Shown: positions 10,868 through 47,638 of the stretch, piece after piece
How positions within the stretch are numbered: the first letter of the stretch is position 1
Layout of the letters: each line of letters starts with the position of its first letter
Source of the DNA: Thermobifida halotolerans
Lineage (GTDB): Bacteria; Actinomycetota; Actinomycetes; Streptosporangiales; Streptosporangiaceae
NCBI RefSeq assembly: GCF_003574835.2
Contig: NZ_CP063196.1
Span: 4,030,001-4,094,000 of the forward strand
DNA length: 64,000 bases
Reading direction: 5' to 3'
The notes under the pieces: generated by a model
Told to the model about the DNA's origin: nothing
Seen by the model: only the letters and a program-made list of their open reading frames with translations
Databases searched by the model: none
Program-made: the position numbers and the translations under genes

Positions 10868-10875
10868 CCGACCGT

Positions 10876-12105
10876 ATGGAGACAACCGACACCTCCCGCG
10901 CGGCCGGACCGGTCCGGGTCCGGCCGCGCGGGGCGGCGGCGGCCCTGGCCGCCCTGTGCGTGACGGTGACCACGAGCTACGGGGTGCTCTTCTACGCCTT
11001 TCCGGTGCTGGCGCTGCCGATCACCGCCGACACCGGGTGGCCTCTGGTGGCGACCACGGCCGCGTTCTCCCTCGCCCAGGTCGTGGGGGCGCTGGTCGGC
11101 GTCCCGGTGGGCCGGTGGCTGGACCGGTACGGGCCGCGCACGGTGATGACCCTCGGCGCCGCCGTCGCCGCCCCCGCCCTGGCGGGGATCGCGCTCGCCC
11201 CCGACCTGTGGTCCTTCGCCGCGGCGTGGCTCGTGGCCGGGGCGACGATGGCCGCGCTGTTCTACCCTCCGGCGTTCGCGGCGCTCACCCGCTGGTACGG
11301 CCCCGACCGGGTGCGCGCGCTGACCGCGCTCACCCTGGTCGCCGGACTCGCCAGCACGATCTTCGCGCCGCTGACCGCCGCCCTCGACGGCTGGCTGGGC
11401 TGGCGGGGCGCCTATCTCGTACTGGCGGCGGTCATGCTGGTGGTCGCCGTACCGCTGCACGCCCTCGCGCTGCGGCCGCCCTGGACCCCCGCGGCCGACG
11501 CGCCGCCGCACGACGACGCGCGGGAGCCGGGAACGGTCCGCTCCGTGGTGCTGAGTCCGGCGTTCCTCGCCCTGACCGGAGCGCTGACGCTGGGCGCGTT
11601 CGGGGTGTACGCGGTTCCGGTCAACATGGTCCCGCTGCTGGACGAGCGTGGTGTGGCCGCGGGTGCCGCGGCGTGGGTGCTGGGCGTCACGGGCATCGGC
11701 CAGGTGCTCGGCCGCCTCCTCTACGCCCCGCTGGACCGGCACACGGGTGCCGCCACCCGCCTGGCGGCCGTACTCGCGGTCTGCGCGCTCACGACGGCGT
11801 TGCTCGCCGCGGTGCCCGGACCGGTGTCGGTGCTCCTCGCCGTGTCGATGCTGGCGGGGGTGGGGCGGGGTGTCTTCACCCTGCTGCACGCCACCGCGGT
11901 CAGCGACCGGTGGGGCACCGCCCGCTACGGCACCCTCAACGGCATCCTGCACGCGCCGCTGTCCCTGGTCAGTGCGGTGGCCCCGGCGGCGGGCGCCTTC
12001 CTGGCCGGGCTCCTCGGCGGCTATCCCGCGCTCTTCGCGCTGCTCGCGGCCACCGCGGTGGCGGGTGTTGTCCTCGCGCCGCTTTCGCGGCCCTCCCGCG
12101 GGTGA
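10876..12105 (+). CDS. MFS transporter (copy 1)
   Basis: A 409-residue major facilitator with about 12 hydrophobic segments and the loop motif GRWLDRYGPRTV after TM2. The ATG at 10876 is nine bases past the preceding stop with no clear SD, so translational coupling to the flavoprotein is likely. It is a close paralogue of 12745-14019. Export of an arsenical, for example an organoarsenical or its acetylated product, is a reasonable inference from the ars setting. The substrate is unknown. Confidence 0.87.
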   Translation: METTDTSRAAGPVRVRPRGAAAALAALCVTVTTSYGVLFYAFPVLALPITADTGWPLVATTAAFSLAQVVGALVGVPVGRWLDRYGPRTVMTLGAAVAAPALAGIALAPDLWSFAAAWLVAGATMAALFYPPAFAALTRWYGPDRVRALTALTLVAGLASTIFAPLTAALDGWLGWRGAYLVLAAVMLVVAVPLHALALRPPWTPAADAPPHDDAREPGTVRSVVLSPAFLALTGALTLGAFGVYAVPVNMVPLLDERGVAAGAAAWVLGVTGIGQVLGRLLYAPLDRHTGAATRLAAVLAVCALTTALLAAVPGPVSVLLAVSMLAGVGRGVFTLLHATAVSDRWGTARYGTLNGILHAPLSLVSAVAPAAGAFLAGLLGGYPALFALLAATAVAGVVLAPLSRPSRG

Positions 12106-33935: not shown

Positions 33936-34436
33936 TCAGAAGCGCCCAGGAGGCTTGGGCATACTGATTCCCAGACCTCGTCTCCACGTGTAGAACAAGT
34001 TCACCAGGTCCTTGAGCTCGTCCAGTTTACTCAGCGATCCCGAACCGATGGCACCGATTGCAGTAAATATCAAGAGCTCTATCCAGTTTCTGGAATCCCT
34101 GTCAGGATTGCTGATGAGATAGATGATTGCACCGGTGACCGCCCCGATTGCCGACAGCCATATCACAGCAGCTGGATCACATATTCCCACAGTGGACATA
34201 GCGCATACAAGCCCGGCGATAGCGAAGAACACCGTGGCAGCTGCGGGGAGCCATTTGACGAACCAAGGGGGCACAGACTTGAGGAACTCCTCGAGCTGCA
34301 AGTCGAGTTCGGCAATCCAGGCATTGAACCCTATTACCAGTTCGGCAAACGGATCCACGATCAGGCATTGATACATGTTCGGCAAGCAATCGAAATGCTC
34401 AAGAGGAGGAACTGGGCTGTATCCAGCCTTGACTCC
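33936..34436 (-). pseudogene. C-terminal fragment of a membrane protein cut by IS630
   Basis: About 165 residues with three hydrophobic segments (WLPAAATVFFAIAGLVCAM, VIWLSAIGAVTGAIIYLIS, WIELLIFTAIGAIGSGSL), ending GISMPKPPGRF. The 5' end is replaced by an IS630 remnant at 34437. No family recognised; GC is lower than the chromosome. Confidence 0.55.
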
Positions 34437-34898
34437 ATCCGGCGACCGGTTCGGTGTCAACGCGATGAGCGCGATCAGCCCCACCGGCAAGCTGTACTTC
34501 ACCGTGTTCGAGGACTCCTTCACCGCCCAGGTGTTCCTCGGCTTCCTGGATCGGTGGGTGGGGCACTTCAGCACCAAGGTGCACCTGGTCGTGGACCAGC
34601 ACTCGGTCCACGGGTCCCGGGCGGTGCGGGAGTGGGTCCACGATCATGCCGAGCGGATCGAGCCGCACTTCCTACCGCCGTATTCGCCCCATCTGAGCCC
34701 TGACGAGCTGGTCAACGCCGATCTGAAGCGGTACCTGGCCGATGAGGTCATGACCGATCGCCACCGTATGCGGGCCCAGGTCCGCTCGTTCTTCCGTAGC
34801 GTTCAGCGACTCACCGGCCATGTCCGGGGTTACTTCCAGGCCCCGCACACCAGCTACACACCACCAGAACCATCTAGTTCCGGTTCATTCCGGCTCAA
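34437..34898 (+). pseudogene. IS630-family transposase remnant
   Basis: The C-terminal ~150 residues of a DDE transposase almost identical to that in the IS630 at 36382-37489 (RFGVNAMSAISPTGKLYF, VVDQHSVHGSRAV, FLPPYSPHLSPDELVNADLK). It ends with the IS terminus CCGGCTCAATA and a ten-base duplication near the end. Confidence 0.8.
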
Positions 34899-34931
34899 TA
34901 GGCCCTTCCACGCAGTGAACTCCAGGATGGT

Positions 34932-35195
34932 CTACTTGAGCGCGGATTCCTCACCCTCGGTGAGGAACCGGCCCGTTCCGGTATTGCGGCCCGGCTTGCC
35001 CGAGCGGAGCGCCTCGGCCCCTCCAGCCTCGCTGCGAGCCTTCCACCGCGCGATCGACTTGGTCGAGACCCCGAAGACCTCGGCAGCCTGGTCCTCCTCC
35101 AGACCGCGGTCGATGGCGTCCATCACCCGCATCCGCACCGCTTCCTGCTGCGCCGGAGAGAGTTTCCGCATGTCCACCAGAAGTTCATCAGCCAC
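34932..35195 (-). pseudogene. Second IS630-type OrfA remnant
   Basis: An 87-residue helix-turn-helix protein (MADELLVDMRKLSPAQQEAV, AAEVFGVSTKSIARWKARS) related to but distinct from the OrfA at 37036-37449. Its orfB is missing, so it is the leftover of another IS630-group element. Confidence 0.7.
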
Positions 35196-35248
35196 AACTA
35201 CACAACGAACGAGACACCGTTGAGTGATGGATCACTATCGCCGATCAG

Positions 35249-35286
35249 CACCCCGCATGGGACGTGCGAGCGTCCCATGCGGGGTG
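35249..35286 (-). terminator. Terminator of the MarR gene
   Basis: A perfect 16-bp stem (35249-35264 and 35271-35286) with a 6-nt loop, 45 bases downstream of the marR-type stop. Confidence 0.85.
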
Positions 35287-35330
35287 TGGTCGTAGGTATC
35301 TCCGTTGCAGAGAGTTCGTCCCACTGCTGG

Positions 35331-35753
35331 TCACAGCAATCGGCCGATGATTGCCCTGAGCGCTGTCACATCGTCGGGCCCGAGTCGGTCCAGCAGGTGA
35401 CGATGGGTCGAGGCGTCCAGAGCCGGCACCGAAGCCTCGATCGTGCGTCGCCCCTCCGGTCGCAGCGCCACTTCGACACCGTTCGCGACCTTGTCCCGCA
35501 CCACATAGTCCCGTTGCTCCATTCTGGTCAGTAGGTGCGAAAGCCGTGTCCGATCCCAGCCCAGGGCCGCGGCAATGGCCGCCTGCCGCAGGACACCACC
35601 GGCATCGTGCAGGCACACCAGGACGCTCAACTCGGGCTCCGAGAGACCCGACGCCACAGTCATGTCGGCGATGACCGCAGCGCGAACCGTCTCGTAGGCA
35701 CGCTTCCACAGCAACCACAGCGCAGTAGCCTCACCCGGCCTTGGTGTTGACAT
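35331..35753 (-). CDS. MarR-family transcriptional regulator
   Basis: A 140-residue winged-helix regulator with recognition region ALGWDRTRLSHLLTRMEQRD (about 63-82) and wing KVANGVEVALRPEG. It starts at the ATG at 35753, which lies inside the palindrome 35743-35762, so autoregulation is expected. Divergent from a membrane protein gene that is its likely target. Confidence 0.9.
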   Translation of the reverse strand: MSTPRPGEATALWLLWKRAYETVRAAVIADMTVASGLSEPELSVLVCLHDAGGVLRQAAIAAALGWDRTRLSHLLTRMEQRDYVVRDKVANGVEVALRPEGRRTIEASVPALDASTHRHLLDRLGPDDVTALRAIIGRLL

Positions 35754-35762
35754 ATCAACACC
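35743..35762. promoter_or_regulatory. MarR-type palindromic operator
   Basis: GGTGTTGA-CATA-TCAACACC has perfect 8-bp arms and covers the start of the MarR gene, 52 nt before the divergent membrane-protein gene. Confidence 0.7.
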
Positions 35763-35813
35763 TTTCTTTAGAATCCAAGACCACAAGACAAACTACAAGC
35801 AAGGATTACAGCG

Positions 35814-36344
35814 ATGCTCGATCCCCGACGGCCCTATCTCAGCCTGCGCGTCGTGGCGCTACTTCCGCTCGTGCTGTTCTTCCCAGCCGTGGTCGCCTTC
35901 TTCGTCAACCCGACAGTGGTGTGGGGCGAATACCTGGGGGTCTTCTTCCACCTCTCCATCCTCTTCCTCGTCTCGCGCCTGGATGCGGCATCGTGGGCCA
36001 AGGCCGCCGGCTACGGATGGGTGACCTTGGACGTGCTCGCCGGCATTCTGATGATCAACGACATTCCCTACGACACGGCCTGGGCGGTCCGGCTCGGCGG
36101 GCATGTCCTCGCCGGCGTCTGGATCGTGTCGAGCTCCCTGGTCTCCAAAGTCTGGCCGGTCCGCATAGTCGGTGTGATCACCGGACTCTGGCTCGCCTCG
36201 TACTCTTTCGTAGGGGACGTGCTTCCGGAGTCGTTCCTGAGTCCGGCCGGCATCTGCATCCTGGTCTGGTTCGCCCTCCTGGCGATCTTCCACCGATCAA
36301 CCGGGGAGCGATCCGCGGGCTCGGCGAGCCCGGCGTTGGTGTAA
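35814..36344 (+). CDS. Membrane protein of unknown function beside MarR
   Basis: A 176-residue protein with about six hydrophobic helices, starting MLDPRRPYLSLRVVALLPLV. No transporter motif recognised. It is divergent from a MarR regulator across the palindromic operator, an arrangement typical of a ligand-inducible membrane protein. It is chromosome-like in codon use, unlike the low-GC genes to its left. Confidence 0.75.
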   Translation: MLDPRRPYLSLRVVALLPLVLFFPAVVAFFVNPTVVWGEYLGVFFHLSILFLVSRLDAASWAKAAGYGWVTLDVLAGILMINDIPYDTAWAVRLGGHVLAGVWIVSSSLVSKVWPVRIVGVITGLWLASYSFVGDVLPESFLSPAGICILVWFALLAIFHRSTGERSAGSASPALV

Positions 36345-36381
36345 CGGCTCTCTTGTCTGTCGCGACCTGCCCGGTCCCCTA

Positions 36382-37044
36382 TTGAGCCGGAACTAGATGG
36401 TTCTGGTGGTGTGTAGCTGGTGTGCGGGGCCTGGAAGTAACCCCGGACATGGCCGGTGAGTCGCTGAATGCTACGGAAGAACGAGCGGACCTGGGCCCGC
36501 ATACGGTGGCGATCGGTCATGACCTCATCGGCCAGGTACCGCTTCAGATCGGCGTTGACCAGCTCGTCAGGGTTCAGATGGGGCGAATACGGTGGTAGGA
36601 AGTGCGGCTCGATCCGCTCGGCATGATCGTGGACCCACTCCCGCACCGCCCGGGACCCGTGGACCGAGTGCTGGTCCACGACCAGGTGCACCTTGGTGCT
36701 GACGTGCCCCACCAACCGATCCAGGAAGCCGAGGAACACCTGGGCGGTGAAGGAGTCCTCGAACACGGTGAAGTACAGCTTGCCGGTGGGGCTGATCGCG
36801 CTCATCGCGTTGACACCGAACCGGTTGCCGGTCCCGGCCGTGGTCGGGGTGTGCCCTCGCAGACCCCAGGTGCGACCCGCCGGGTGGTCTGAGCGCACCC
36901 CGACCTGGTCGGCGAACACCACCCGCTCCCCGTGGGCGCGGGCCCGCTCGCGTAGAGCGGGCCAGGTGCGCCCGGTCCACTCCTGCTGGGCCCCGGGGTC
37001 GGTTTCGAACGCGCGCCGGTCCGGGCGTTGGAAGGTCAGCCCCA
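36382..37044 (-). CDS. IS630 transposase OrfB
   Basis: DDE domain of the transposase: VVFADQVGVRSDHPAGRTWG, VVDQHSVHGSRAVREW, LPPYSPHLNPDELVNADLK. It has no independent start and no stop inside the IS, since the frame runs out past the left end. It is made by frameshift from orfA around GGGG at about 37038, where ILRRWG is followed by LTFQRPDRR. Confidence 0.8.
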
Positions 37045-37449
37045 ACGGCGCAGGATCTTGCGTATGCCCCGGTCGGTGAAGGTGGTGCCGAACAGCTGTT
37101 GGACCAAAGCGGCGACCTTGACAGCGGTCCACAGGGTGCCGCCCAACCCCAACTCTTGGGGCTCGTACTCCAGGAGCGCCTGGGCCAGGGCCTGTTCCTG
37201 GGCAGGGGTGAGCTTGGTGTGCTCACCGGGTTTTCGGCCCGGCCTGCCCGAGCGCAGGCCTTGGGCCCGGTCTGCTTCTTGGCGGCGGCGCCAGTTGCGG
37301 ATCGAGTCGGGGCTGACGCCGAAGACGCGCACGGCTTCGGCCGGGCCCATGCCGTCGTTGACCGCGCCCATCACCCGCATCCGCAGTGCTTCCTGTTGGG
37401 CGGGTGCGAGTCTGCGCATGTCCACCCGCAGGTCACCGTCATCGCTCAT
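37036..37449 (-). CDS. IS630 transposase OrfA
   Basis: A 137-residue DNA-binding half with helix-turn-helix VFGVSPDSIRNWRRRQEA (about 42-59) and a second winged region (YEPQELGLGGTLWTAVKVA). It ends RKILRRWG at a TGA within a G-rich slippery run. Confidence 0.88.
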   Translation of the reverse strand: MSDDGDLRVDMRRLAPAQQEALRMRVMGAVNDGMGPAEAVRVFGVSPDSIRNWRRRQEADRAQGLRSGRPGRKPGEHTKLTPAQEQALAQALLEYEPQELGLGGTLWTAVKVAALVQQLFGTTFTDRGIRKILRRWG

Positions 37450-37541
37450 GTACCTGTAACACCACAGGAACCAACAGATTCCGGCTCAATACCAGACCCC
37501 GGCCGCGCCTCTCACCCTACTCGTAGGTACAGAAAACACCA

Positions 37542-38392
37542 TCACTCAGCGGGGTCGAGGAGGGCTGCGGTGGCTGCTGCGGCGGCTTTGGCGACGTCGG
37601 GGTAGACGTGCTGGTAGGTGTCCTGGGTGAAGTGGGTGGTGGCGTGCCCCAGCTCAGCGGAGACCACCTTCACGTCGACTCCGGCGGCGAGCATCATCGA
37701 GGCTGCGCCGTGGCGTAGCCCGTGCAGCCCGATCGGGGGCAGGCCCTCCCAGGAGGCGATGCGGTGGAACTGGTCGGTCACCCACGCCGGATGCAGCGCT
37801 TGGCCCTGTTCGTCGGTGAACACCAGGCCTGAGTCCTGCCAGTCGGCTCCGGCTCTGAGCCGTTCGGCGGCCTGCTGTCTGCGCCAGGCGCGCAGGACTC
37901 TGGTGGTGCCGTCGTCGAGGGTGACGGTGCGCTGCCCGGCCAGGCTCTTGGGAGTGGTGGTGATCGTCTCCCAGCCCAGTTGCACGATCTGGATGCGGAT
38001 GTCGATGGTGCCTTCGGCCAGGTGGGTTTCGGTCCAGGGCAGGCCCACGGCCTCGCCGCGGCGCAGTCCCTTCATCGCGATCAGGTGGAACAGCGCGTAG
38101 AGGCGGTGGCCTCTGGCGCGGCGCAGGAAGGCGCGGGTCTGCTCGGGCGTCCAGACCATGACCTGGCAGAGCACCCGACCGCTCCATTTCCACTGGGCAA
38201 CGCGTTCGGGGGTCCAGACCAGGGGCCGGGTGCGGGGCGCGCTCGGCAGGTGCACGTGGACGGCGGGGTTGAGGGACAGGGGCAGGTCGGGGCGGCGCAG
38301 TGCGGTGTTGAGTGCGCTGCGCAGGGTGGCGCGGACGCGGTGCTGGGTGGCGGCGCCGACGGTGCGCAGACCCCACACCCAGGCCCGCTGGA
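37542..38392 (-). pseudogene. 5'-truncated tyrosine recombinase
   Basis: The catalytic half is intact: Arg in GLRRGEAVGL, His-x-x-Arg in HGLRHGAAS, LGHATTHF and nucleophile Tyr in TQDTYQHV. Most of the N-terminal core-binding domain is missing. Upstream of about 38392 the frame fuses into the 3' end of the glycosyltransferase gene at 38402. It is probably the integrase of a former element whose end was deleted here. Confidence 0.8.
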
Positions 38393-38401
38393 TCCGCCGC
38401 C

Positions 38402-39487
38402 TCAGCTCCTGTCGATCAGGCGGCGGTAGAGGTCCAGGTGGCTGACGGCCGCCCTCTCCCAGCTGTAGCTGGCCGCGAGGGTTCGCCCCGCCGCTCGCAG
38501 GGACTCCGGGTCCTCGAGCGCGGCCCGCATCTGGACCGCGAACCCGGCGGGATCGGCGGCGAATCGGGCGGCACCCCCGAAAACCTCGCGCAGCACGGGA
38601 AGTTCACGGGTGACCAGCGGCACGCCAGCGGCGAGGGCCTCCATCGCGGCCAGCCCGAATCCCTCCTTCGTCGAGGGGAAGGCGAACACGCTCGCGGCGG
38701 CCACCAGAGACGGAAGGTCGCCATGGTCCACCGCGCCGAGCACCACCGGCTCGACGCCCAACTCGGCGGCGCGCTTGTCGAAACGGGTGCGGTAGTCGCG
38801 GTAGTCGAACAGGGTCTCCCCACCGGCGATCACGAGCCGCACACCGGGCACGGACCCGCGCAGGAGAGCGTAGGCCTCGAGCAGGTCCAGCGTGCCCTTG
38901 CGCGGCTCGATGCCGCCGACGGTGAGCACGTAGCGGCCCAGCTCCGAGCGCCACCGCCGCGTGGCGGCTCGGTCCTCGGCGGCGAGCGCGAACCGGCGCG
39001 CGTCGACGCCGTTGGGAATGACGGCGGCCTCGATTCCCCAGCCCTGCCGGAGTTCTTCCGCCACCGCCGCGGACACGCAGACATGGGCGAACGGGCGCAC
39101 GATGGCCCGCTCGTGGCAGGCAGCCAACTCCGGGGTGGTGAAGTGGTCGACGTGGTGCACCGTCCGGACGCACCGTTGCGCCGCGTTGGCGCTGATGCAG
39201 TCCTGGGCGTGCACGATGTCGTGGTCGGCCGGTTCGAACGCGGCGCGCAGCGTCTCGATCGAGCGCAGGATGCGCGGGCCGACGCCTTCGCCCTCGCGGT
39301 CGGGGAACGGCACGATCCGCAGCCGGACCCTGGGGTCGACCGGCCGGAAGAAACCGCTGTCGCCACCCCGTCCCAGGGCCCACACGGTGACCTCCTGGCC
39401 AGCCGCGGCCAGCGCCTCGGCGAGCGCGAGGGTGTGCACGACTCCACCGCGTGGCCTGGTCGAGTAGCTCAGCAGCGCGATCCTCAC
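38402..39487 (-). CDS. MSMEG_0565-family glycosyltransferase (Nit1C cluster)
   Basis: A 361-residue GT-B fold glycosyltransferase of the GT4 type: N-terminal LLSYSTRPRGGVVHTLALAE, C-terminal nucleotide-sugar site FPSTKEGFGLAAMEALAAG (about 270). The ATG overlaps the preceding nitrilase stop by 4 nt (ATGA), so it is the last gene of the Nit1C operon. The family is consistently found with these clusters, but its acceptor is unknown. Its end abuts the recombinase remnant. Confidence 0.9.
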   Translation of the reverse strand: MRIALLSYSTRPRGGVVHTLALAEALAAAGQEVTVWALGRGGDSGFFRPVDPRVRLRIVPFPDREGEGVGPRILRSIETLRAAFEPADHDIVHAQDCISANAAQRCVRTVHHVDHFTTPELAACHERAIVRPFAHVCVSAAVAEELRQGWGIEAAVIPNGVDARRFALAAEDRAATRRWRSELGRYVLTVGGIEPRKGTLDLLEAYALLRGSVPGVRLVIAGGETLFDYRDYRTRFDKRAAELGVEPVVLGAVDHGDLPSLVAAASVFAFPSTKEGFGLAAMEALAAGVPLVTRELPVLREVFGGAARFAADPAGFAVQMRAALEDPESLRAAGRTLAASYSWERAAVSHLDLYRRLIDRS

Positions 39488-40317
39488 AGGGTTCTCCGGT
39501 AGGCGGCCACCTTGCGTTCACGGAGGTGGTCATGCACGCGCCGGGCGTTGGCGATCGCCATGGCCACGTCGACCTCGGCGACCGCGATTCCGGCCTTGCT
39601 CCAGGTGCGGGCCAGGATGTCCCCGCCCGGCCCGACCACCTTGGCCTGGCCGAGGAAGCGCATCCCGCCCATCGCACCGGTCTGGTTCGACGAGGCCAGC
39701 ACCACCTGGTTTTCGGCGGCCCGCGCCTGGTCGTAGAGATCGAAGAGGCGGGACTGCCGGTCCTGCGCCATCCGGGGCGCGCGGTTGGTGATGCTCGTCG
39801 GCCACGCCGACAGGCAGGCCACGATCTCCGCGCCGTCCAGGGCGAGGCTGCGTGCCGACTCGGGGAAGGTCTTGTCGTAGTCGATGAGCATGCCGACCCG
39901 GCCGACCGGGGTGTCGAAGGCGGCGAAGGTGTCCCCCGCGGAGTACGCGGCGACCTCACCCGGTGGCTGGTGCACCTTCCGGTGATGCCCGAGAATCCCG
40001 TCCCCGGTCACGCACACCGCGGCGTTGTACCGGTCGCCCCCCGCCGCTTCGCAGTATCCGACGCACACGACCATCTCCGCCGCCAGCGCCGCGATCTGCT
40101 TGAGGCGGGGGCTGTCCCGCTCGAGCGCGGGCGGCAGCACCTCCGGGTCGGGATGTCGCAGGTCGGCCAGGTAGCCGCCGAGCGCGGCGTCCGGCAGCAC
40201 CAGCAGGGAGACCCCGGAACCACGGGCGTGCTCGATGAGCGTGGCGATGCGCTGCAGGTCGAAATCGAGGTCGCGGCCGAAGTGCGCGGCCACCGCCCCG
40301 ATGCGTGTCACACCCAT
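39484..40317 (-). CDS. Nitrilase-superfamily pseudoenzyme (Asp-Lys-Asp)
   Basis: A 277-residue protein aligned end to end with its neighbour at 40322-41161. The catalytic Glu is replaced by Asp43 (LVLPDAALGGYL), Lys114 is kept (HHRKVHQP), and the nucleophilic Cys is Asp146 (GMLIDYDKTFPE). Both changes are clean GAC codons, so it should not work as a nitrilase or amidase. The fold is otherwise conserved (SAWPTSITNRAP, LASSNQTG). Starts four bases after the active paralogue. It may be a regulatory or structural subunit, or have another chemistry. Confidence 0.88.
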   Translation of the reverse strand: MGVTRIGAVAAHFGRDLDFDLQRIATLIEHARGSGVSLLVLPDAALGGYLADLRHPDPEVLPPALERDSPRLKQIAALAAEMVVCVGYCEAAGGDRYNAAVCVTGDGILGHHRKVHQPPGEVAAYSAGDTFAAFDTPVGRVGMLIDYDKTFPESARSLALDGAEIVACLSAWPTSITNRAPRMAQDRQSRLFDLYDQARAAENQVVLASSNQTGAMGGMRFLGQAKVVGPGGDILARTWSKAGIAVAEVDVAMAIANARRVHDHLRERKVAAYRRTL

Positions 40318-40321
40318 ACGG

Positions 40322-41161
40322 TCAGCACCTCGTCGCGGCGAGGTCTTCGTAGGCCTCGGGTCGCCGGTCCCGCAGGTGGCTCATGGACCGCCGAGCCGTC
40401 TCCAGCGCCTGCCGCACGTCGAACTCGGCGACCGCGAGGCCCTCGCGGACCCCGGTGTCGGAGACGATCTCGCCGCCCGGGTCGACCACCTTGGCGCTGG
40501 CCACGAACCGCAGGTCGCCGAAGGTACCGGACTGGTTCGCCGACAGCCACACGATCTGGTTCTCCAGTGCGCGCGCCCGGTCGAACAGGTCGAAGCGGCG
40601 CTTCCACCGGTCCTGCGTGAGGTCCGCCGCGGCGTTGGTCCGGCTACCGGGCCAGGCCGACACACACACCACGATCTCGGCGCCGTCCAGTGCCAGGGAC
40701 CGCGCCGCCTCGGGGAAGGCCTTGTCGTAGCAGATCATCATGCCGAGTCGGCCGACCGGCGTGTCGAAGGCGGCGAACTCGTTGCCCGCCCAGTAGGTGG
40801 CGTCCTCGGACAGCGGCTGGTGCACCTTGCGGTGGTTGCCGAGCACGCCGTCGCCGTGGACGCAGACCACGCTGTTGTACAGGCGGTCACCGGCGTCCTC
40901 GCAGTATCCCGCGGTCACCACCATGTCGCCGGCCAGCGCGGCGAGCCGGCGGATCTCGGGACCGTCCAACGCCAGCGCCGGCGGACCGGCCGCGCCCCCG
41001 TCGAGGTTCGCCAGGTACCCGCCGAGGCACGCTTCGGGCAGGGCGAGCAGCCGGACCCCACTCGCGCGTGCCTGGTCGATCAGGGAGGAGATCCGCGCGA
41101 AATCGGCCTCCAGATCGCGGTCGAACGGCGCGGCCACCGCCGCCATGCGCAGGCTACTCAA
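40322..41161 (-). CDS. Nit1-type nitrilase (carbon-nitrogen hydrolase)
   Basis: A 279-residue nitrilase with the full catalytic triad: Glu43 (LALPEACLGGYL), Lys112 (NHRKVHQP) and Cys144 (GMMICYDKAFPE). In Nit1C clusters this enzyme is associated with nitrile or cyanide-derived nitrogen assimilation. The TTG start at 41161 overlaps the preceding stop (TTGA) and has GGGGA five bases upstream. An ATG at 41146 is an alternative, but homologous N-termini extend further. Confidence 0.9.
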   Translation of the reverse strand: MSSLRMAAVAAPFDRDLEADFARISSLIDQARASGVRLLALPEACLGGYLANLDGGAAGPPALALDGPEIRRLAALAGDMVVTAGYCEDAGDRLYNSVVCVHGDGVLGNHRKVHQPLSEDATYWAGNEFAAFDTPVGRLGMMICYDKAFPEAARSLALDGAEIVVCVSAWPGSRTNAAADLTQDRWKRRFDLFDRARALENQIVWLSANQSGTFGDLRFVASAKVVDPGGEIVSDTGVREGLAVAEFDVRQALETARRSMSHLRDRRPEAYEDLAATRC

Positions 41162-42540
41162 GAAATCCCCAATCCCGTCACACCGGACTCGATCACCCGG
41201 GTCCGCTCTCCATCCGGCCAGCGCAGCATCACGCCGCTGCCGGTCACCAGCTCCCCGCACTGGGCGCTCACCGCTGGTCCGGCCGGCAACGGCTCGCCGC
41301 CGGGTGCGTCCGCGGTGAGCATCGCGAACCCCGGGAAGCAGGTGAGCCAGTCCCCGACCGTCGCCCCGGCCGGCCGCGGCACGTCGGCGACGTCCAGCAC
41401 CGCCCCGCAACCGCTGGCCTCGGCGAGCATTCCCAGGGTGCCGACGATGCCCGCCATCGACACGTCCTTGGCGGCGGCGGGCCGGGCCGCCGCGACGGAG
41501 GCCAGCATCGCCCGTAACTCGGGGGTCCGCCGCGAGGTGGTGGAATCCCACTGCCTGCCCGCGTGTCCGGGCCGCCAACGCCCGGCGAGGTCGGCGGTGA
41601 GCCGCACCCGGTGCCCGGCTTTCCCTCCGCCGCCCGGAACCGGCCGGGCGGTGCGGCCGAGCGCGGTGACCGACAGTGCGGCGGGTACCCCGAGCTGCGT
41701 GTGCCCGCCGAGCACGGGCACGTCGTACGCCTGGCTCGCCCGCCGCAGGCCGGCCAGCACGCGGGAGGCGAACGACCGGTCCCTCGCCCCCAGCGCGTCG
41801 AGCAGGCCCACCGGGGCGGCGCCCATCGCGGCGAGGTCGTTGACGTTGACCAGCACCGAGCACCAGCCCGCCCAGTCCGGATCGCGCTCCACCATCGACG
41901 GAACGATCGCGTCGCACGCCGCCACCACATCGCTGCCCGGCACCGGAACGCCGTCGTCACCCACGAAGCCCGGGACACCGGTCAACCCGGTCAGCAGCGG
42001 CCCGAGATCGCTCTTGGTGGTCTTCGCCAGCGCGGCGATCCGGCCGATCGGCCACCGCATCAGCACGTGCGGGCGGTCGGCCACGGTCACCGGGCGCACG
42101 GCGTCCCAGCCGAGCCGGCGGAACAGGCGCTCGTTGCGGGCCTGCACCGTGGCCTCGAACCGCAGCACGCCGGCGTTCTCGGCATGCGCGCACGCCGCCC
42201 GGACCAGTGCGGGGCCGATCCGCCCGCGGCTCGACGGGGCGACCACCAGCCGCCCGCCGAGCCACCAGCCCAGGTCCGGTCCCGCGTCGGCGGGTCCCAG
42301 CCGGACCCCGCCGAGGACCGCGCCCTCACGGTCACGGGCGACCAGCACGATCGTCCGGGGGTCGTCGTCGTGCGCGTCGAGGTCGTGCCCGGTGAACAGG
42401 CCCTGCTCGTGCACGAACACCTCGGTCCGCAGGGCGCGGTAGGCCGCGACCGTCGCCGCGTCCTCGGCCCGCTCGATGCGGAAGGCCGGCTGCCGCGCGA
42501 TGCTGGCCTGGTCGCCCAAGACCGCGAGGACGTCCATCAT
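41158..42540 (-). CDS. MSMEG_0567-family GNAT/AIR-synthase-like fusion
   Basis: A 460-residue protein. Residues about 15-160 are a GNAT domain (FRIERAEDAATVAAYRALR, VVAPSSRGRIGPALVRAAC). Residues about 165-450 are a PurM/AIR-synthase-like ATP-binding domain (LVNVNDLAAMGAAPVGLLDA, VLGGHTQLGVPAALSVTALG). In some bacteria these are separate genes. The family is named for nitrogen-starvation-induced MSMEG_0567/Sll0786. ATG at 42540, two bases after the radical SAM stop. The substrate is unknown. Confidence 0.9.
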   Translation of the reverse strand: MMDVLAVLGDQASIARQPAFRIERAEDAATVAAYRALRTEVFVHEQGLFTGHDLDAHDDDPRTIVLVARDREGAVLGGVRLGPADAGPDLGWWLGGRLVVAPSSRGRIGPALVRAACAHAENAGVLRFEATVQARNERLFRRLGWDAVRPVTVADRPHVLMRWPIGRIAALAKTTKSDLGPLLTGLTGVPGFVGDDGVPVPGSDVVAACDAIVPSMVERDPDWAGWCSVLVNVNDLAAMGAAPVGLLDALGARDRSFASRVLAGLRRASQAYDVPVLGGHTQLGVPAALSVTALGRTARPVPGGGGKAGHRVRLTADLAGRWRPGHAGRQWDSTTSRRTPELRAMLASVAAARPAAAKDVSMAGIVGTLGMLAEASGCGAVLDVADVPRPAGATVGDWLTCFPGFAMLTADAPGGEPLPAGPAVSAQCGELVTGSGVMLRWPDGERTRVIESGVTGLGIS

Positions 42541-42542
42541 GG

Positions 42543-43625
42543 TCACGCCCCCGCCGCGCTCAGGGCACCGCAGGCCCCGCACGCCGCGCATCCGGCTCCC
42601 TGGTCGGCACCCCTCATCCCGGCCCCGCGCAGCAGGGCGGCCACCCGCTCGGTGACGTCGCGGACCAGCGCCGGCTCGGGGGCCTTGGCACCGTCGCGGC
42701 GGGCCAGCGTGCCCAGCATCGGCCGCATCGGCACGACGAACGGGTACACCCCGCGCTCGATCAGCCGTGCCGCGCCGTCCACCAGCTCGTCGGGATCCTC
42801 GCCGAGACCGATCAGGAGGTAGGTCGAGACCCGGTTACGGCCGAACACGCGCACCGCCTCGTCCCACGCGGCCTCGTACTCGCCCAACGGCACGGTCGAC
42901 TTGCCCGGCATCCACCGTCTGCGCACCTCGTCGTCCAGTGACTCGACGTGGATGCCGATCGAGGTCGCTCCCGCCTCCCGTAGCTCGGCCAGCACCGCGA
43001 GGTCGCCGGGCGGCTCGATCTGGACCTGGACCGGCAGGCCGGGTACCGCCTCCAGCACCGCCCGCACACACCGCACGAGGTGCCGCGCACCGCGATCCGG
43101 CCCAGCGGTGGTGCCGGTGGTCATCACCATCTGCCGGACGCCGTCCAGCCGCACCGCGGCCTCGGCGACCTCGGCCAGTTGCGCCGGGGTCTTCGCCGCG
43201 ACCGTCGAGCCGGATCGCAACGACTCCTCGATGGTGCAGAACCGGCAGCGCTGGTCCTCCCCGTACCGGACGCAGGTCTGCACCACCGTGGTGGCGAGCA
43301 CGTCCCGGCCGTGCAGCAGGGCGATCTTCCGGTACGGCACGCCGTCCGCGGTCGTCAGATCGTAGAACCGTGGCCGCGCGACGGGTTCCACCGACAGGCC
43401 GAGATCGATGGCGCCGTCGAACACCCGCCCGTCCCGGACCGTGTAGGGGCTCTCCGGGTTCAACGGCAGCGCCGCGTTGGCACCGTCGACCACCAGGTGT
43501 CCGTCATCACTCGGCCCGGCGCCCTTGCTCCGTCGCACCGGCGTGTCCACCCGCACGCCCCGCACGGCGAGATCGACCCTCGCCGCGAGCTTCTCCGCCG
43601 TCTGCTCATCTACGTCAACGCGCAC
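42543..43625 (-). CDS. MSMEG_0568-family radical SAM protein
   Basis: A 360-residue radical SAM enzyme. The cluster-binding cysteines are in CVRYGEDQRCRFCTI (about 121-135), a spaced variant of CX3CX2C typical of this family. A cysteine-rich end (GAGCAACGACG) may bind a second Fe-S cluster. GTG at 43625 with GGGAG upstream. Part of the Nit1C operon; it would generate a radical on an unknown substrate. Confidence 0.9.
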   Translation of the reverse strand: MRVDVDEQTAEKLAARVDLAVRGVRVDTPVRRSKGAGPSDDGHLVVDGANAALPLNPESPYTVRDGRVFDGAIDLGLSVEPVARPRFYDLTTADGVPYRKIALLHGRDVLATTVVQTCVRYGEDQRCRFCTIEESLRSGSTVAAKTPAQLAEVAEAAVRLDGVRQMVMTTGTTAGPDRGARHLVRCVRAVLEAVPGLPVQVQIEPPGDLAVLAELREAGATSIGIHVESLDDEVRRRWMPGKSTVPLGEYEAAWDEAVRVFGRNRVSTYLLIGLGEDPDELVDGAARLIERGVYPFVVPMRPMLGTLARRDGAKAPEPALVRDVTERVAALLRGAGMRGADQGAGCAACGACGALSAAGA

Positions 43626-44225
43626 GACACTCCCTGAAAGCTCCGGCCCCGTCGGAATCGAGTCAATACGGGGTCCGTTTCCTCGCCATGACATCCGGAC
43701 TACGGCTGTATTAGCCGTGCTATGTGGATACTTCGGAAGAAAACGGCGCGCGGGACGAGCGCGCCGCCGCGCCCACCCCGCGCACTGACACTCGGGCCTC
43801 CCTGCGTTGTGGGATCGACTTGCCCAGCGCGGGCGGCACGGCCGGGGTCGGGAAGACGTACAGCGGGGCGGGGGTGAGATCACACCGAGCACCTTTGCCC
43901 GGCATCCGGTCGTACGTGGGGTCACCGCGACGGACAGGAAGGCGGTCAGCCGGACGACCGGGACCGGCGACAGCACCGGCTTCCGTCGGGGAACTCCCAC
44001 CAGAACAGCGGCACGGTCGCCACCGCGACAGCGAGGTTGCCGATCGGTTGGGGACCGGGCCTCCTGTCGGACCGAGTGCCACGGAGAACGTGACGGTTCC
44101 CGTACGGGGAACTCCCGTGGCACCCGGTACCGTGGCGATGACGATGGCGGCCCGCGCGGAACCGGCGATGTCGGCAAGCCGCCCGGACGGACGGCAGCCC
44201 ACGGACACGGACTGGTCCGCGGCGG
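43626..44225. other. 600-bp non-coding gap inside the Nit1C cluster
   Basis: No supportable gene. It separates the first four Nit1C genes from the last five on the same strand, so a second promoter upstream of the radical SAM gene is likely. A short palindrome GTTCCC-GTACG-GGGAAC lies near 44095-44112 (inexact loop); no known riboswitch was recognised. Confidence 0.5.
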
Positions 44226-44738
44226 TTACCACATGTAGGTGGAGTTGATGATCGCACCCTTGCGGGCGTAGTGGATCAGGGCGTCCTGCACGTCGAGCGG
44301 GTGCGTCGGAATGACACCCTGGATCAGGTCCTCCTCCCGGAGTCCGTGCAGCGAGAGACCGAAGCGGCAGCAGTACACCTTGCCGCCCTCCTTGATGAAG
44401 GTCTTCAGCTGGTCGTTGATGTTGTGCTCACCGGGAAACGCGGAATTTCCGGTGGTCGGGAATCCACGGGTCGCCATGCAGTTCATCGCGCCGGGTCCGT
44501 AGAAGTAGATCGCGGACTCGAACCCCTTGCGCAGCGCGCGGGTCGCCTGCAAGATCGCCACGAAACTCACCGACGACTCGTGCGCGATGCCGTGGACGAG
44601 GGTGAAGTACGACTGACCGGGCTCGGCCTGGTAGTCGGGAAAGACCTTCGTCCCGCCGTAGATGCTGGACCCTTCCGGCAGCGAAGGGTGCGGGATCTCC
44701 TCAAGGCTCTGCTTCTCGGTTTCGGTCAACTCGGACAC
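44226..44738 (-). CDS. MSMEG_0572/Sll0783-family nitrogen starvation protein
   Basis: A 170-residue protein of the Sll0783 family. GTG at 44738 with AAAGGAGAGCAC just upstream. A DsrE-like alpha/beta fold is suggested by FVAILQATRALRKGFESAIY and the Cys pair in KVYCCRFGLSLHG. Its cyanobacterial homologue is among the most strongly nitrogen-starvation-induced genes. Molecular function unknown. Confidence 0.93.
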   Translation of the reverse strand: MSELTETEKQSLEEIPHPSLPEGSSIYGGTKVFPDYQAEPGQSYFTLVHGIAHESSVSFVAILQATRALRKGFESAIYFYGPGAMNCMATRGFPTTGNSAFPGEHNINDQLKTFIKEGGKVYCCRFGLSLHGLREEDLIQGVIPTHPLDVQDALIHYARKGAIINSTYMW

Positions 44739-44780: not shown

Positions 44781-45608
44781 CTATCCGTAGAGCTTTTCGA
44801 AAGTGCCGCGGAAAACGAGGTCCGCGAGTTCACCGCCACCCGTGGCGGCGCGCAGCCGCGCGTACTCGCCCTCGTGGTCTCCCCAGGGCTGGTCGCTGGC
44901 GAACAGGATCCGGTCGTGCCCGATCCCGCGCCGGTCGATCTCCTGGGCCAGCCAGCGAGGCGCGAAACCGATCGACCACGAAAGGTCGGTGTAAACCCGC
45001 TTACCGGCCTCGATCCAGTCGAAGAACCGGTGCGAGACCAGCTTGATGTGACCGCTCATGCCGCCACCGAAATGCACCAGGTGCACCGCCACGTCGTCGC
45101 CGTAGGTGTCGACGAGGTTCCCGACCTCGTCGATATCCGAAGCCGCGCCGGGCGAGGTGTGCACATGGACCACGAGCCCGTGCTCGCGGGCCACCGCGAA
45201 GATCCGGTCCAGGCCGGCACGGCACGCCGGATCGTCCGGTCGGCCGCCGAGCAGGAAGCTGAGCTTGAGCGCCCGCACGCCCGGTTCCCCCGCCAGGGCC
45301 AGCGCGGCCGCGGTCCGCTCCGCGTCGCGCGCCAGCGGGGAGACCCACAGCCCGGCCCGGATCCGGTCGTCGCGGCCCGCCGCCTCCACGCACAATTCGT
45401 TGAAGGAGAAGGCGATATCCGGATCAGGAACACCGTAATTGGGAATGACGAGCGCCCGCTCGGTACCCTCGGCGTCCAGATCCGAGATGAGTTCGTCGAT
45501 CGTCGCCCGGGCGCTGATGTCGGGCCGCACCGCGGGACCCCCGTAAAAGGGGTACGCGGGCATCACACCGATATGCCGGTGCGCGTCGTGAACGCCTCGG
45601 TCAGCCAT
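44781..45608 (-). CDS. Nit1C amidohydrolase
   Basis: A 275-residue metal-dependent hydrolase (amidohydrolase_2-like TIM barrel). The N-terminal DAHRHIG supplies the metal-binding His pair, VVHVHTSPGA and the LVHFGGG region add further His residues, and LFASDQPWGDH carries the catalytic Asp. ATG at 45608. It sits between the flavin oxidoreductase and the Sll0783-family gene, and may hydrolyse the product formed by the other enzymes. Confidence 0.88.
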   Translation of the reverse strand: MADRGVHDAHRHIGVMPAYPFYGGPAVRPDISARATIDELISDLDAEGTERALVIPNYGVPDPDIAFSFNELCVEAAGRDDRIRAGLWVSPLARDAERTAAALALAGEPGVRALKLSFLLGGRPDDPACRAGLDRIFAVAREHGLVVHVHTSPGAASDIDEVGNLVDTYGDDVAVHLVHFGGGMSGHIKLVSHRFFDWIEAGKRVYTDLSWSIGFAPRWLAQEIDRRGIGHDRILFASDQPWGDHEGEYARLRAATGGGELADLVFRGTFEKLYG

Positions 45609-45694: not shown

Positions 45695-47032
45695 TCAGGC
45701 CACGGTGCGGGTCGCCGTCCAGTACTCGTCGCTGGGAAAGGTGCTCTCCGGCGTCCCCGCGATCCACGGCACCTCGCTGGCGGCCCCGTCGCGCCGCGCC
45801 GACGCGATGCACGACGCGAGATACGCGGCGTCGTCGGCCACCCCGCAGAACCGGCCGGAGCCCCAGGTGTGCTGCCAGGGCAGCCCGATGAAGTACAGGC
45901 CCGGGCAGCTGGTGACGCCGCGCTCGTGTGCGGGATACCCCCGCCCGTCGAAGACGGGGACGTCGATCCAGCGGTAGTCCCGGCCGAACCCGGTGCACCA
46001 CACCACCGAGGTGATCTGTGACGTGTTGACGTCCAGTTCGGACGGTTCCGCGCCCGGTTCCCACACCGGCACGTAGCGAGCCTCGATGGGGGCGTCCACC
46101 CCGCTGGCACGGATGTGGGCGTCGATCGCGTCCTTGATTCCCTCCGACACCGCGTCGGCATGATCGAGGTTCTGCTTCAGATCGGGTGCGAAGCGCAGCA
46201 CCCCGTCGCGGATGTCGGTGAGCCTGCCGTACAGCCGCATCCCGCCGCGGGCGAACGCCCGCAGATCGATGTCTCGGCCGCCGTCGCGACCGGTGACATA
46301 GTGGTTGGCCCGGAACCGCACCGCGTCGGCGTCCTCGAACTCGTCGATGCTCCGCCGGTAGTACCCCATGTCCTCCAGCCAGGCGACCACGTCACGCCCC
46401 CGGTAGAACCGCGCGACCCGCGGCGCGCTGCCCACCGCGAGATGCACCCGCCGCCCCGCCAGATGGAGGTCCTCCGCGATCTGGCAGCCGGACTGGCCGG
46501 TGCCGACGACGAGTACCTCGCCCGGCGGCAGTTCCGCGGCGTTGCGGTATTCGGAGGAGTGCAGTTGCACCACGTCCGCGGGCATCCGCTCGGCGAGCCG
46601 CGGCTTGAGCGGCACCTGGTACGGTCCGGTCGCCAGCACGACCTGGTCCGCGGTCAGCTCTCCGTGCGTGGTGGCTATCCGGAACCCGCCTCCCTCGGCG
46701 AGCCGCAACCGGGTCGCGGTCACTCCCTGGACGAGCGGGACGTCGAAGGACTCCGCGTAGTCCTCGATGTAGCGCACGATCTCGTCGCGGACCATGAACC
46801 CGTCGGGATCGGCGCCCCGGTAGGGGAAACCGGGCAGTCGGCACTGCCAGTTCGGGGTGACCAGGCAGAACGAGTCCCAGCGCCGGTTCCGCCATTCGCT
46901 CCCCGGGCGGTCCCGCTCCAGCACGACGTGGTCGATGCCCGCCCGGCACAGGTGGTAGCTCGTGGACAGCCCGGCCTGCCCGCCGCCCACGACCACCACC
47001 GAGCGGTGCACCCCCTCCAGGTCCGTCTTCAC
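45695..47032 (-). CDS. MSMEG_0569-family flavin-dependent oxidoreductase
   Basis: A 445-residue FAD/NAD(P) monooxygenase-type protein with FAD motif [20 protein letters not shown] (about 12-31), NADPH motif [17 protein letters not shown] (about 170-186) and [15 protein letters not shown] near residue 350. GTG at 47032 overlaps the MSMEG_0570-family stop by 4 nt (GTGA). One of the conserved redox enzymes of the Nit1C pathway; the reaction is unknown. Confidence 0.92.
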
Positions 47033-47313
47033 CGCTCGAATCCCTCCACCACGACGCTCGCCTCCTGGTCGGCGAACTCGGCGGCCTTGCTCTCGATGTC
47101 CGCCATCTGCACCACCGTCTGCGCGCATCCGAATCCGTAGATCTCGCGCACCCGCTCCGAGGCGGCGGTCAGCGCCTTTCTGCTCAACGTGACGAACTCG
47201 GCCACGGAGTAGGAGCCGCCAGCGCGGAAGACGTCCTCGACCACGGTCGAGGGGGAGTAGCAGCGGTGGACCGAGTCGTCCGGCCAGCGCACGCGGAACA
47301 ACACTTCAGGCAC
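47029..47313 (-). CDS. MSMEG_0570-family nitrogen starvation protein
   Basis: A 94-residue protein, first gene of the Nit1C cluster. The GTG at 47313 ([14 protein letters not shown]) is chosen because AGGAGG lies six bases upstream. A further upstream GTG would place that SD inside the gene. It contains one Cys in [11 protein letters not shown]. Small conserved protein of unknown function. Confidence 0.92.
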
Positions 47314-47638
47314 GATCGCCTCCTGCACTCCATTGACGACGGAGACCAGTGGACCGGGCGCCCGTTTCCGACCTGTTTCATCCGGAACATCTGCGAGTTA
47401 TCGATCGCCGGAGGCCGTTACAGTACGGTTCCGACTCGTGCCGGTGGCAGAGGTGCGGCGGCTCGGTCGCAGCCGCACAGCACGGTCCCACGCCGCGTGG
47501 CGGCCGTCGGCCCCGATCACTGGCCTCGACGCCTCACCGCGCGGCTCTCCGGCCCACCACGGCATCCCGCTCGCGCCCACGCTGACCGGCACGGCGCCAC
47601 CCGACTCCTGCCGCTGCTCGACGCGCTGTCGTCACAGC

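What the first reader, a model, noticed from the sequence alone, without database searches (positions are those of the whole stretch)
39484..41161. Tandem nitrilases in a Nit1C cluster, one with the catalytic triad changed to Asp-Lys-Asp
Seen: two adjacent nitrilase-fold genes align along their length. The upstream one has Glu43, Lys112 and Cys144 (MICYDK). The downstream one has Asp43, Lys114 and Asp146 (LIDYDK), each encoded by a clean GAC. Known: nitrilase-superfamily chemistry needs Glu-Lys-Cys, and Nit1C clusters usually carry one nitrilase. Inference: the second copy is a pseudoenzyme that may form mixed filaments with, or regulate, the active one, or it binds the nitrile/cyanide product. 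I know of no described Asp-Lys-Asp partner in this cluster.
Basis: partly seen in the sequence, partly recalled or inferred. Interest (0 to 1): 0.8.

Follow-up and report, generated by a model that had tools for sequence, protein, structure and literature searches.

The report
Conserved cysteine-less nitrilase twin
Many soil actinobacteria carry, inside a nitrogen-starvation gene cluster, a normal nitrilase-type enzyme and a twin whose reactive cysteine has been fixed as aspartate; the twin is better preserved than the enzyme itself, so it is not a wreck but a protein with a job still to be found.

Summary
P0001 (39484-40317, -) has D43, K114, E121, D146; its neighbour P0002 (40322-41161, -) has the full tetrad E43, K112, E119, C144. 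It is no private mutation: in 106 distinct proteins of the P0001 type, K114, E121 and D146 are invariant and position 43 is D 99, G 5, H 1, Q 1; 118/118 of the P0002 type are E-K-E-C. Of 32 other CN-hydrolases examined (of 105 matches in 21 related genomes), 31 could be aligned and all are E-K-E-C. The cysteine-less copies form one clade (UFBoot 100), are under purifying selection (median omega 0.13, active twin 0.17), and lie beside the twin in 79 of 80 named loci. The cluster resembles the Mycobacterium smegmatis gpr nitrogen-starvation operon; by gene order MSMEG_0566, annotated 'aliphatic amidase', should be this type. It is Nit1C-like but lacks the Nit1C nitrilase family. Most likely: an old thiol-free paralogue whose pocket is still used, for ligand binding or non-thiol chemistry. 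Mixed oligomers are untested; co-evolution gave no special support and rare orphan copies speak against an obligate partner.

The parts
39484..40317 (-). P0001, cysteine-less CN-hydrolase paralogue ('DKED' type)
   Evidence: fold model mean pLDDT 90.1, nearest solved folds are nitrilase-superfamily amidases
39880..39882 (-). codon GAC for D146, at the place of the nucleophile Cys
   Evidence: D in 106 of 106 distinct proteins
40189..40191 (-). codon GAC for D43, at the place of the general-base Glu
   Evidence: D 99, G 5, H 1, Q 1 of 106
39976..39978 (-). codon for K114, retained tetrad Lys
   Evidence: 106 of 106
39955..39957 (-). codon for E121, retained second Glu of the tetrad
   Evidence: 106 of 106
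40322..41161 (-). P0002, CN-hydrolase with intact E43-K112-E119-C144 (start TTG overlaps the stop of the gene before)
   Evidence: E-K-E-C in 118 of 118 distinct proteins
38402..39487 (-). MSMEG_0565-family glycosyltransferase; its start overlaps the stop of P0001
   Evidence: TIGR04047, 471.5 bits, cut-off 259.85
41158..42591 (-). MSMEG_0567-family GNAT plus AIR-synthase-like fusion
   Evidence: TIGR04050 and TIGR04045 above cut-off
42543..44177 (-). MSMEG_0568-family radical SAM protein (the family match is residues 201-542 of this ORF, so the true start is probably later)
   Evidence: TIGR04043, 499.4 bits, cut-off 303.7
44226..44738 (-). MSMEG_0572/Sll0783 nitrogen-starvation protein
   Evidence: TIGR04044, 256.4 bits, cut-off 109.85
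44781..45608 (-). Amidohydro_2 family hydrolase
   Evidence: PF04909, 73.5 bits, cut-off 26.4
45695..47128 (-). MSMEG_0569-family flavin-dependent oxidoreductase
   Evidence: TIGR04046, 661.2 bits, cut-off 498.35
47029..47328 (-). MSMEG_0570-family small protein
   Evidence: TIGR04042, 111.6 bits, cut-off 79.85

Best explanation
P0001 belongs to one old, fixed clade of CN-hydrolase paralogues that arose by duplication in actinobacterial Nit1C-like (gpr-type) nitrogen-starvation clusters. The clade exchanged the nucleophile Cys for Asp, lost the strict need for the general-base Glu, and kept the tetrad Lys and second Glu. Shown: the residues, their invariance, monophyly, purifying selection and linkage to the cluster. 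Inferred: it cannot run the thioester chemistry of the superfamily. Because the segments that carry the catalytic residues are conserved as well as or better than in the active twin (one loop marginally less), the pocket is still used, most likely with D146 pairing with K114 to bind a pathway intermediate (an amide, carbamoyl or amine compound) without splitting it through a thiol. It would work beside the active E-K-E-C twin in the same operon as a ligand-binding or ligand-responsive partner, or as a non-thiol catalyst.
For: K114, E121, D146 invariant in 106/106 and the twin E-K-E-C in 118/118. 31 of 32 other CN-hydrolases examined from 21 related genomes could be aligned and all 31 are E-K-E-C (32 of 105 matches), so the change is derived and unusual. 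Single clade: UFBoot 100 with 27 representatives, FastTree 1.0 with 106. Median omega 0.132 against 0.167 for the twin in 180 close pairs; dN lower than the twin's in 4846 of 5460 pairs of loci (pairs are not independent and some genomes occur twice). Segments with the catalytic residues: loop 40-54 0.94 v 0.85 in the twin, elbow 144-157 0.95 v 0.92, loop 168-182 0.90 v 0.75, but loop 112-122 0.86 v 0.88; whole alignment 0.83 v 0.79. Beside the twin in 79 of 80 named loci. Two matches, one of each type by identity, in 38 of 39 positive genomes of the window's family. Solved Cys-to-Ala/Ser mutants of this fold are listed with bound ligand (6ypa with glutaramide, 4izs with butyramide, 5h8l with a ligand whose name is cut at 'put'; titles), so a thiol-free pocket can hold a ligand. 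Expression of MSMEG_0566 under nitrogen limitation or starvation, or in biofilm, is reported in three papers (PMC4222082, PMC4617892, PMC6039565; passages and one section).
Against: No ligand, activity or interaction is known; pocket use rests on conservation, and this clade is more conserved overall, not only near the pocket. Model coordinates could not be read, so which residues line the pocket was not measured. That MSMEG_0566 is of this type rests on gene order alone; its sequence was not seen. 16 of 49 positive genomes in the class sample have only the active-type match (14 of the 16 read), so the pathway can run without it. One of the two patterns used to find the 80 named loci contains K114, which favours its conservation in that set; D146, E121 and position 43 lie in neither pattern.
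Confidence: 0.6

Rival explanations
1. Dead-partner model: the cysteine-less copy is a structural or allosteric subunit that forms a hetero-dimer or mixed oligomer with the active twin and switches it on or off, as the dead paralogue 'prozyme' does for AdoMetDC in trypanosomes; its own pocket is incidental.
For: Same fold, apparently one operon, next to each other in 79 of 80 named loci. Known functional members of the superfamily have an underlying dimer (PMC4700190, start of abstract in a listing). 4 of the 11 positions that are at least 90% conserved in each copy but differ between them lie on one helix, 187-203 (Q188, L191, Y195, A201), which from recall belongs to the usual dimer surface. 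Dead-paralogue activators exist (PMC5201418, start of abstract in a listing).
Against: No special co-evolution with the twin: partial r 0.12, against 0.23 with MSMEG_0567 and 0.20 with the glycosyltransferase (81 loci). In the 26 class-sample loci with the copy, it is next to the glycosyltransferase in 24 but next to the twin in 7 (an eighth, L070, has 1.6 kb without a detected cluster gene between them); in the 80 named loci the figures are 76 and 79. Three copies without the active twin keep D-K-E-D (L066, read as L039; L228; L179). Pocket residues did not relax.
Confidence: 0.2
2. New-enzyme model: D146 on the nucleophile elbow is a working nucleophile or general acid/base with K114 and E121, making a thiol-free class of catalysts in the nitrilase fold.
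For: D146, K114 and E121 are invariant (106/106) although single-base neighbours of Asp were available throughout; low omega. Asp nucleophiles on elbows, and Asp-Lys-Asp sites, are known in other hydrolase folds (recalled).
Against: No such chemistry is described in the superfamily to my knowledge; position 43 tolerates Gly, so at least one catalytic carboxylate is dispensable; nothing here tests catalysis.
Confidence: 0.13
3. Decaying duplicate or sequencing error.
For: Loss of two catalytic residues is what decay can look like. One copy (G480) was flagged with one TGA inside the match.
Against: Same residues in 106 distinct proteins, no internal stops in the 224 copies extracted, median omega 0.13. 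The G480 stretch cut three bases shorter at each end reads open (L077), so that TGA is probably the gene's own stop.
Confidence: 0.01

Closest known systems
M. smegmatis gpr operon MSMEG_0565-0572 (PMC6039565, one section and passages; PMC4222082 and PMC4617892, passages)
   Same: Same gene families; gene order of a family-f6 locus (L080) matches gpr in all eight positions, which puts this cysteine-less type at MSMEG_0566 and the active type at MSMEG_0571.
   Different: The papers call MSMEG_0566 an aliphatic amidase; in the passages read, a missing nucleophile is not remarked on. The window cluster has an extra amidohydrolase gene and a different order.
Nit1C cluster (Podar 2005, PMC1199592, passages)
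   Same: Homologues of ORF1, radical SAM, GNAT, AIRS, ORF6 and flavoprotein; a glycosyltransferase also sits in some Nit1C clusters.
   Different: Podar's Nit1C is confined to subfamily-1 nitrilases, one per seven-gene cluster; here two CN-hydrolases of another branch take that place.
Nitrilase superfamily amidases (PH0642/6ypa, N-carbamoylputrescine amidohydrolase 5h8i-l, Nesterenkonia amidase 3hkx/4izs)
   Same: Fold (Foldseek probability 1.00, TM to query 0.74-0.83 in the 50 listed); tetrad Lys and second Glu (the latter by alignment to the family, not to these structures).
   Different: Nucleophile Cys is Asp; first Glu is Asp, Gly, His or Gln.
Prozyme-type dead paralogues (T. brucei AdoMetDC prozyme, PMC5201418, start of abstract in a listing)
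   Same: Fixed inactive-looking paralogue kept beside an active one.
   Different: Different fold (recalled); no complex shown here; no co-evolution signal; a few copies found without the active twin.

Membership tests
Nit1C gene cluster (sensu Podar) | Subfamily-1 (Nit6803-type) nitrilase | tested here: not met
   TIGR04048 31.8 (P0001) and 36.1 (P0002) bits, cut-off 502.6; own genome no match at E <= 1e-50
Nit1C gene cluster (sensu Podar) | ORF1, radical SAM, GNAT, AIRS-related, ORF6 and flavoprotein homologues in one cluster | tested here: met
   TIGR04044, 04043, 04045, 04050, 04042, 04046 all above cut-off; TIGR04049 (sll0787-type AIRS) is below its cut-off, 184 v 321.3
gpr (GlnR-dependent) operon of M. 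smegmatis | Same eight gene families | tested here: met
   two CN-hydrolases, order rearranged, one amidohydrolase gene extra; MSMEG sequences themselves not compared
gpr (GlnR-dependent) operon of M. smegmatis | GlnR control and peroxide resistance | tested here: inconclusive
   One half-site-like match upstream at 47417-47432, but 4 matches in the window against 1.19 expected, and 2 against 1.17 for the other arrangement; phenotype not testable here
CN-hydrolase (nitrilase) superfamily, PF00795 | Family profile and alpha-beta-beta-alpha fold | tested here: met
   P0001 124 bits, cut-off 23.2; model and Foldseek
CN-hydrolase (nitrilase) superfamily, PF00795 | Catalytic C-E-E-K tetrad in P0001 | tested here: not met
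   Lys and second Glu present, Cys and first Glu absent
CN-hydrolase (nitrilase) superfamily, PF00795 | Catalytic C-E-E-K tetrad in P0002 | tested here: met
Pseudoenzyme | Homologue of an enzyme with essential catalytic residues lost and conserved as lost | tested here: met
Pseudoenzyme | No catalytic activity | not testable with these tools
   needs biochemistry

The most novel reading that the evidence does not exclude
D146, with K114 and E121, is a working thiol-free active site: the clade is a new catalytic class inside the nitrilase fold (Asp on the nucleophile elbow), acting on the next intermediate of the still unsolved Nit1C/gpr pathway, so that enzyme and cysteine-less twin carry out two successive steps in the same fold.
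Probability: 0.14. Interest if true: 0.85.

Novelty: new variant of a known kind. Interest (0 to 1): 0.62.

Why it matters
It gives a defined, widespread and strongly conserved case of a nitrilase-superfamily protein that has given up the family's essential cysteine. It suggests that MSMEG_0566, which three papers annotate as an aliphatic amidase, may not be a thiol hydrolase, in an operon whose role in nitrogen starvation and peroxide survival is reported while its chemistry is open. Because M. smegmatis is a laboratory organism and a deletion of the whole operon has a reported phenotype, the role of this copy can be tested directly.

Tried and rejected
Rejected: private mutation and decay. 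Rejected: strict Nit1C membership. Tried without result: a GlnR box (4 matches v 1.19 expected, 2 v 1.17); promoter scan (none; three terminator-like sites against 2.0 expected); co-evolution of the twins (no special link); rooting by own-genome CN-hydrolases (very long outgroup branch, root unresolved; support labels printed after re-rooting are misplaced, so split support was re-read unrooted). Twelve class-sample genomes have the MSMEG_0572 family but no nitrilase match; 10 of the 12 were fetched (G511 and G623 were not) and no nitrilase of this type was found in the stretches held. Structure models could be seen only as summaries, so no distances or complexes were computed. Literature: 10 searches; no title or abstract start listed dealt with a cysteine-less nitrilase partner, but some lists were cut and the library holds open-licence papers only. 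In my scripts the label 'AH0571' stands for the window's amidohydrolase (44781-45608) and is a misnomer: MSMEG_0571 is a CN-hydrolase.

Two further f6 genomes are not counted there: G868 has a partial match (residues 94-243, 79%) and G889 a 49% match, both unread. The 106 and 118 distinct proteins come from loci L060-L179 plus the window after dropping identical proteins; L001-L059 and L185-L214 are not in that count. Copies were sorted into the two types by the better tblastn score, not by residue. In one search, 32 of the 105 CN-hydrolase matches had a held locus and were taken (L184 could not be aligned and was dropped); these are mostly the best-scoring ones. One truncated extra copy beside an intact cysteine-less copy in L189 reads ?-E-E-C and is in none of the counts. 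The order-level search added four genomes to the family and no match.
Full report
What was reported is there. On the - strand, a CN-hydrolase with intact tetrad E43-K112-E119-C144 (P0002, 40322-41161) is followed, after four bases, by a second CN-hydrolase (P0001, 39484-40317) with D43-K114-E121-D146. They are 59% identical. Genes on both sides overlap by four bases (41158-41161 and 39484-39487), so they look like one transcription unit with the MSMEG_0565-0572-type families around them. The superfamily's catalytic set is a tetrad, C-E-E-K; in AtNIT4 it is E76, K163, E170, C197 (PMC6637149, passages). The spacing of Lys to second Glu is +7 there and in both window proteins. So P0001 keeps two of four catalytic residues and has lost the nucleophile and the general base.

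The pattern is fixed over a wide range of actinobacteria. In the window's own family 39 of 341 genomes have a match at E <= 1e-60, and 38 of these 39 have two; the 30 for which loci were held all read D-K-D, and the 29 twins among them all E-K-C. One of the two search patterns of that scan contains K114; D146, E121 and position 43 are in neither. The genera include Lentzea, Saccharothrix, Amycolatopsis, Kutzneria, Streptomyces, Rhodococcus, Microbispora, Sphaerisporangium, Planosporangium, Dactylosporangium, Paractinoplanes and Kineosporia. In a sample of 394 genomes of the class 49 have a match: 33 with the cysteine-less copy, all 33 read, and 16 with the active type only, 14 of them read. 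Of the 33, 32 also have the active-type match; the exception is G371. In the same sample 60 genomes carry the MSMEG_0572 family, among them all 48 that have an active-type match. In 251 genomes of family f6, 61 have a full-length cysteine-less copy; the 33 read all have K and D at the two places and D at 43. Over 106 distinct proteins K114, E121 and D146 are invariant and position 43 is D 99, G 5, H 1, Q 1; over 118 distinct twins E-K-E-C is invariant. D146 is GAC in 100 and GAT in 5 of 105 genes.

Is that more than the background? Of the 105 CN-hydrolase matches in 21 related genomes (which include the window's own pair), 32 others had a held locus; 31 could be aligned and all 31 are E-K-E-C. 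These are mostly the best-scoring ones, so weak members are under-sampled. The ancestral state is therefore most likely E-K-E-C. The cysteine-less copies form a single clade with a long stem: UFBoot 100 and 0.36 substitutions per site with 27 representatives, FastTree support 1.0 with 106. A moderately supported split (UFBoot 81, FastTree 0.93) joins them with the active copies of family-f19 clusters that have no cysteine-less copy. The root is not resolved because the outgroup is far away.

It is not decaying. Extracted copies have no internal stops; the one TGA flagged (G480) is probably the gene's own stop, since the stretch three bases shorter at each end reads open. In 180 close pairs of clusters the median omega (Nei-Gojobori) is 0.132 for the cysteine-less copy and 0.167 for the active one (maxima 0.64 and 0.81), lower for the former in 130 of 180. 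Over all 5460 pairs of 105 loci dN is lower in the cysteine-less copy in 4846; pairs are not independent, and some genomes occur twice, once named and once unnamed. In the 4705 pairs with dS 0.15-0.9 the medians are 0.29 and 0.31 (maxima 0.73 and 0.90), where dS in these G+C-rich genes is probably underestimated. The segments that carry the catalytic residues are not relaxed: loop 40-54 0.94 against 0.85 in the twin, elbow 144-157 0.95 v 0.92, loop 168-182 0.90 v 0.75, but loop 112-122 0.86 v 0.88, and the whole alignment 0.83 v 0.79. Eleven positions are at least 90% conserved in each copy but differ between them: 43, 146, 150, 188, 191, 195, 201, 222, 239, 262, 267. Four of them lie in helix 187-203 of the model, which I recall as part of the usual dimer surface; this was not measured.

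What it works with. The cluster is Nit1C-like: six of the seven Nit1C gene families are present above a family cut-off (the Nit1C definition is from passages of PMC1199592), but the Nit1C nitrilase family is not. Across 246 genomes of the class 23 have a TIGR04048 match at E <= 1e-50 and none passes that family's cut-off of 502.6 (the best, G413, has 484.3); the own genome has none. The closest described system is the M. smegmatis gpr operon, MSMEG_0565-0572, which is GlnR-dependent, induced in nitrogen-free medium (measured on MSMEG_0572), and needed for peroxide resistance there (PMC6039565). Gene order in L080 (0572, active copy, 0570, flavoprotein, radical SAM, 0567, cysteine-less copy, glycosyltransferase) matches MSMEG_0572 to 0565 in all eight places, so MSMEG_0566 ('aliphatic amidase') is inferred to be the cysteine-less copy and MSMEG_0571 the active one. 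Expression ratios under nitrogen limitation are 2.96 and 4.06 (PMC4617892); a nitrogen-starvation transcriptome table lists 8.94 and 48.04 (PMC4222082; its column heading was not in the passage). The sequence of MSMEG_0566 itself was not seen. Public annotation of a Rhodococcus plasmid cluster calls both copies 'carbon-nitrogen hydrolase family protein'.

How it most likely works. Shown: a fixed, selected, thiol-free paralogue inside a cluster of the nitrogen-starvation type. Inferred: loss of the nucleophile ends thioester chemistry, while the unchanging K114, E121 and D146 mean that the pocket still does something. Since Gly is tolerated at 43 but nothing except Asp was seen at 146, the simplest picture is that the carboxylate has moved from position 43 to 146, where it faces K114. 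That would give a site that holds an amide, carbamoyl or amine intermediate. Solved Cys-to-Ala or Cys-to-Ser mutants of this fold with bound ligand (titles of 6ypa, 4izs, 5h8l) show that such a site can hold a ligand. Whether the result is sensing, handing on, activation of the twin, or a non-thiol reaction cannot be decided here.

Evidence against a tight partnership of the twins. Distances of the two copies over 81 clusters correlate no better than with other cluster genes once the rest is held constant (partial r 0.12; 0.23 with MSMEG_0567, 0.20 with the glycosyltransferase). In the 26 class-sample loci with the copy it is next to the glycosyltransferase in 24 and next to the twin in 7, with one more (L070) unclear (read); in the 80 named loci the figures are 76 and 79. 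Three places have the copy without the twin: L066 (no other cluster gene in 18 kb and no second match in that genome), L179 (none in 20.8 kb; rest of that genome not searched) and L228 (a fragmented cluster, genome G031); all three keep D-K-E-D (as L039, 60). On the other side, where the copy is found the twin is nearly always in the same cluster, and the superfamily's basic unit is a dimer (start of the abstract of PMC4700190), so a mixed dimer remains open.

Verdict. A real and well-conserved nucleophile-swapped branch of the CN-hydrolase superfamily, not described in what ten literature searches listed: a new variant of a known kind. It is surprising for its fixity rather than for its mere existence, and directly testable in a laboratory strain.

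Noticed in passing
window 34375-38378: Next to the glycosyltransferase end of the cluster lie a phage-integrase-family gene (37542-38378, -) and two DDE_3 transposase stretches with HTH partners (36068-37132 and 37036-37449, -; 34375-35223, +, with HTH at 34932-35195, -) around a MarR-family gene (35331-35786, -). The three other genomes of the genus have no match to P0001 at E <= 1e-40, so the cluster may have been acquired.
   Followed up: partly
L086 9018-10616 and L088 9015-11078: In two clusters with only the active nitrilase that were looked at, a different large FAD-monooxygenase-like ORF (by eye, not searched) fills the gap before the glycosyltransferase, and no MSMEG_0569-type flavoprotein was detected.
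   Followed up: partly
L066 9342-10205: Orphan cysteine-less copy without cluster, directly before what looks by eye like an aldose epimerase gene (10207-11334).
   Followed up: partly
L189 2706-3212: A shortened extra copy beside an intact cysteine-less copy, reading ?-E-E-C at the catalytic places; that genome (G775) has another, unread 48% match on a different contig.
   Followed up: no
L214 (Rhodococcus qingshengii plasmid pN9T4-1): The cluster with both nitrilases lies on this large plasmid (E-K-E-C and D-K-E-D read); three more Rhodococcus plasmid records have 66-67% matches, unread.
   Followed up: partly
window 47417-47432: GGAAC-N6-GTAAC, resembling part of a GlnR site (motif recalled), about 90 bases before the first gene of the cluster; not significant by count (4 in the window against 1.19 expected).
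   Followed up: partly
L217-L227, L229: MSMEG_0572-family genes without a nitrilase of this type in the stretch held; L217 and L220 are second copies in genomes that also have a full or active-only cluster.
   Followed up: partly
PMC6039565, discussion passage: That paper proposes that MSMEG_0571 to 0569 are read through as one selenoprotein. In the syntenic loci here the active nitrilase, the 0570-type and the flavoprotein genes are separate matches. The proposal was not tested.
   Followed up: no
   Followed up: partly
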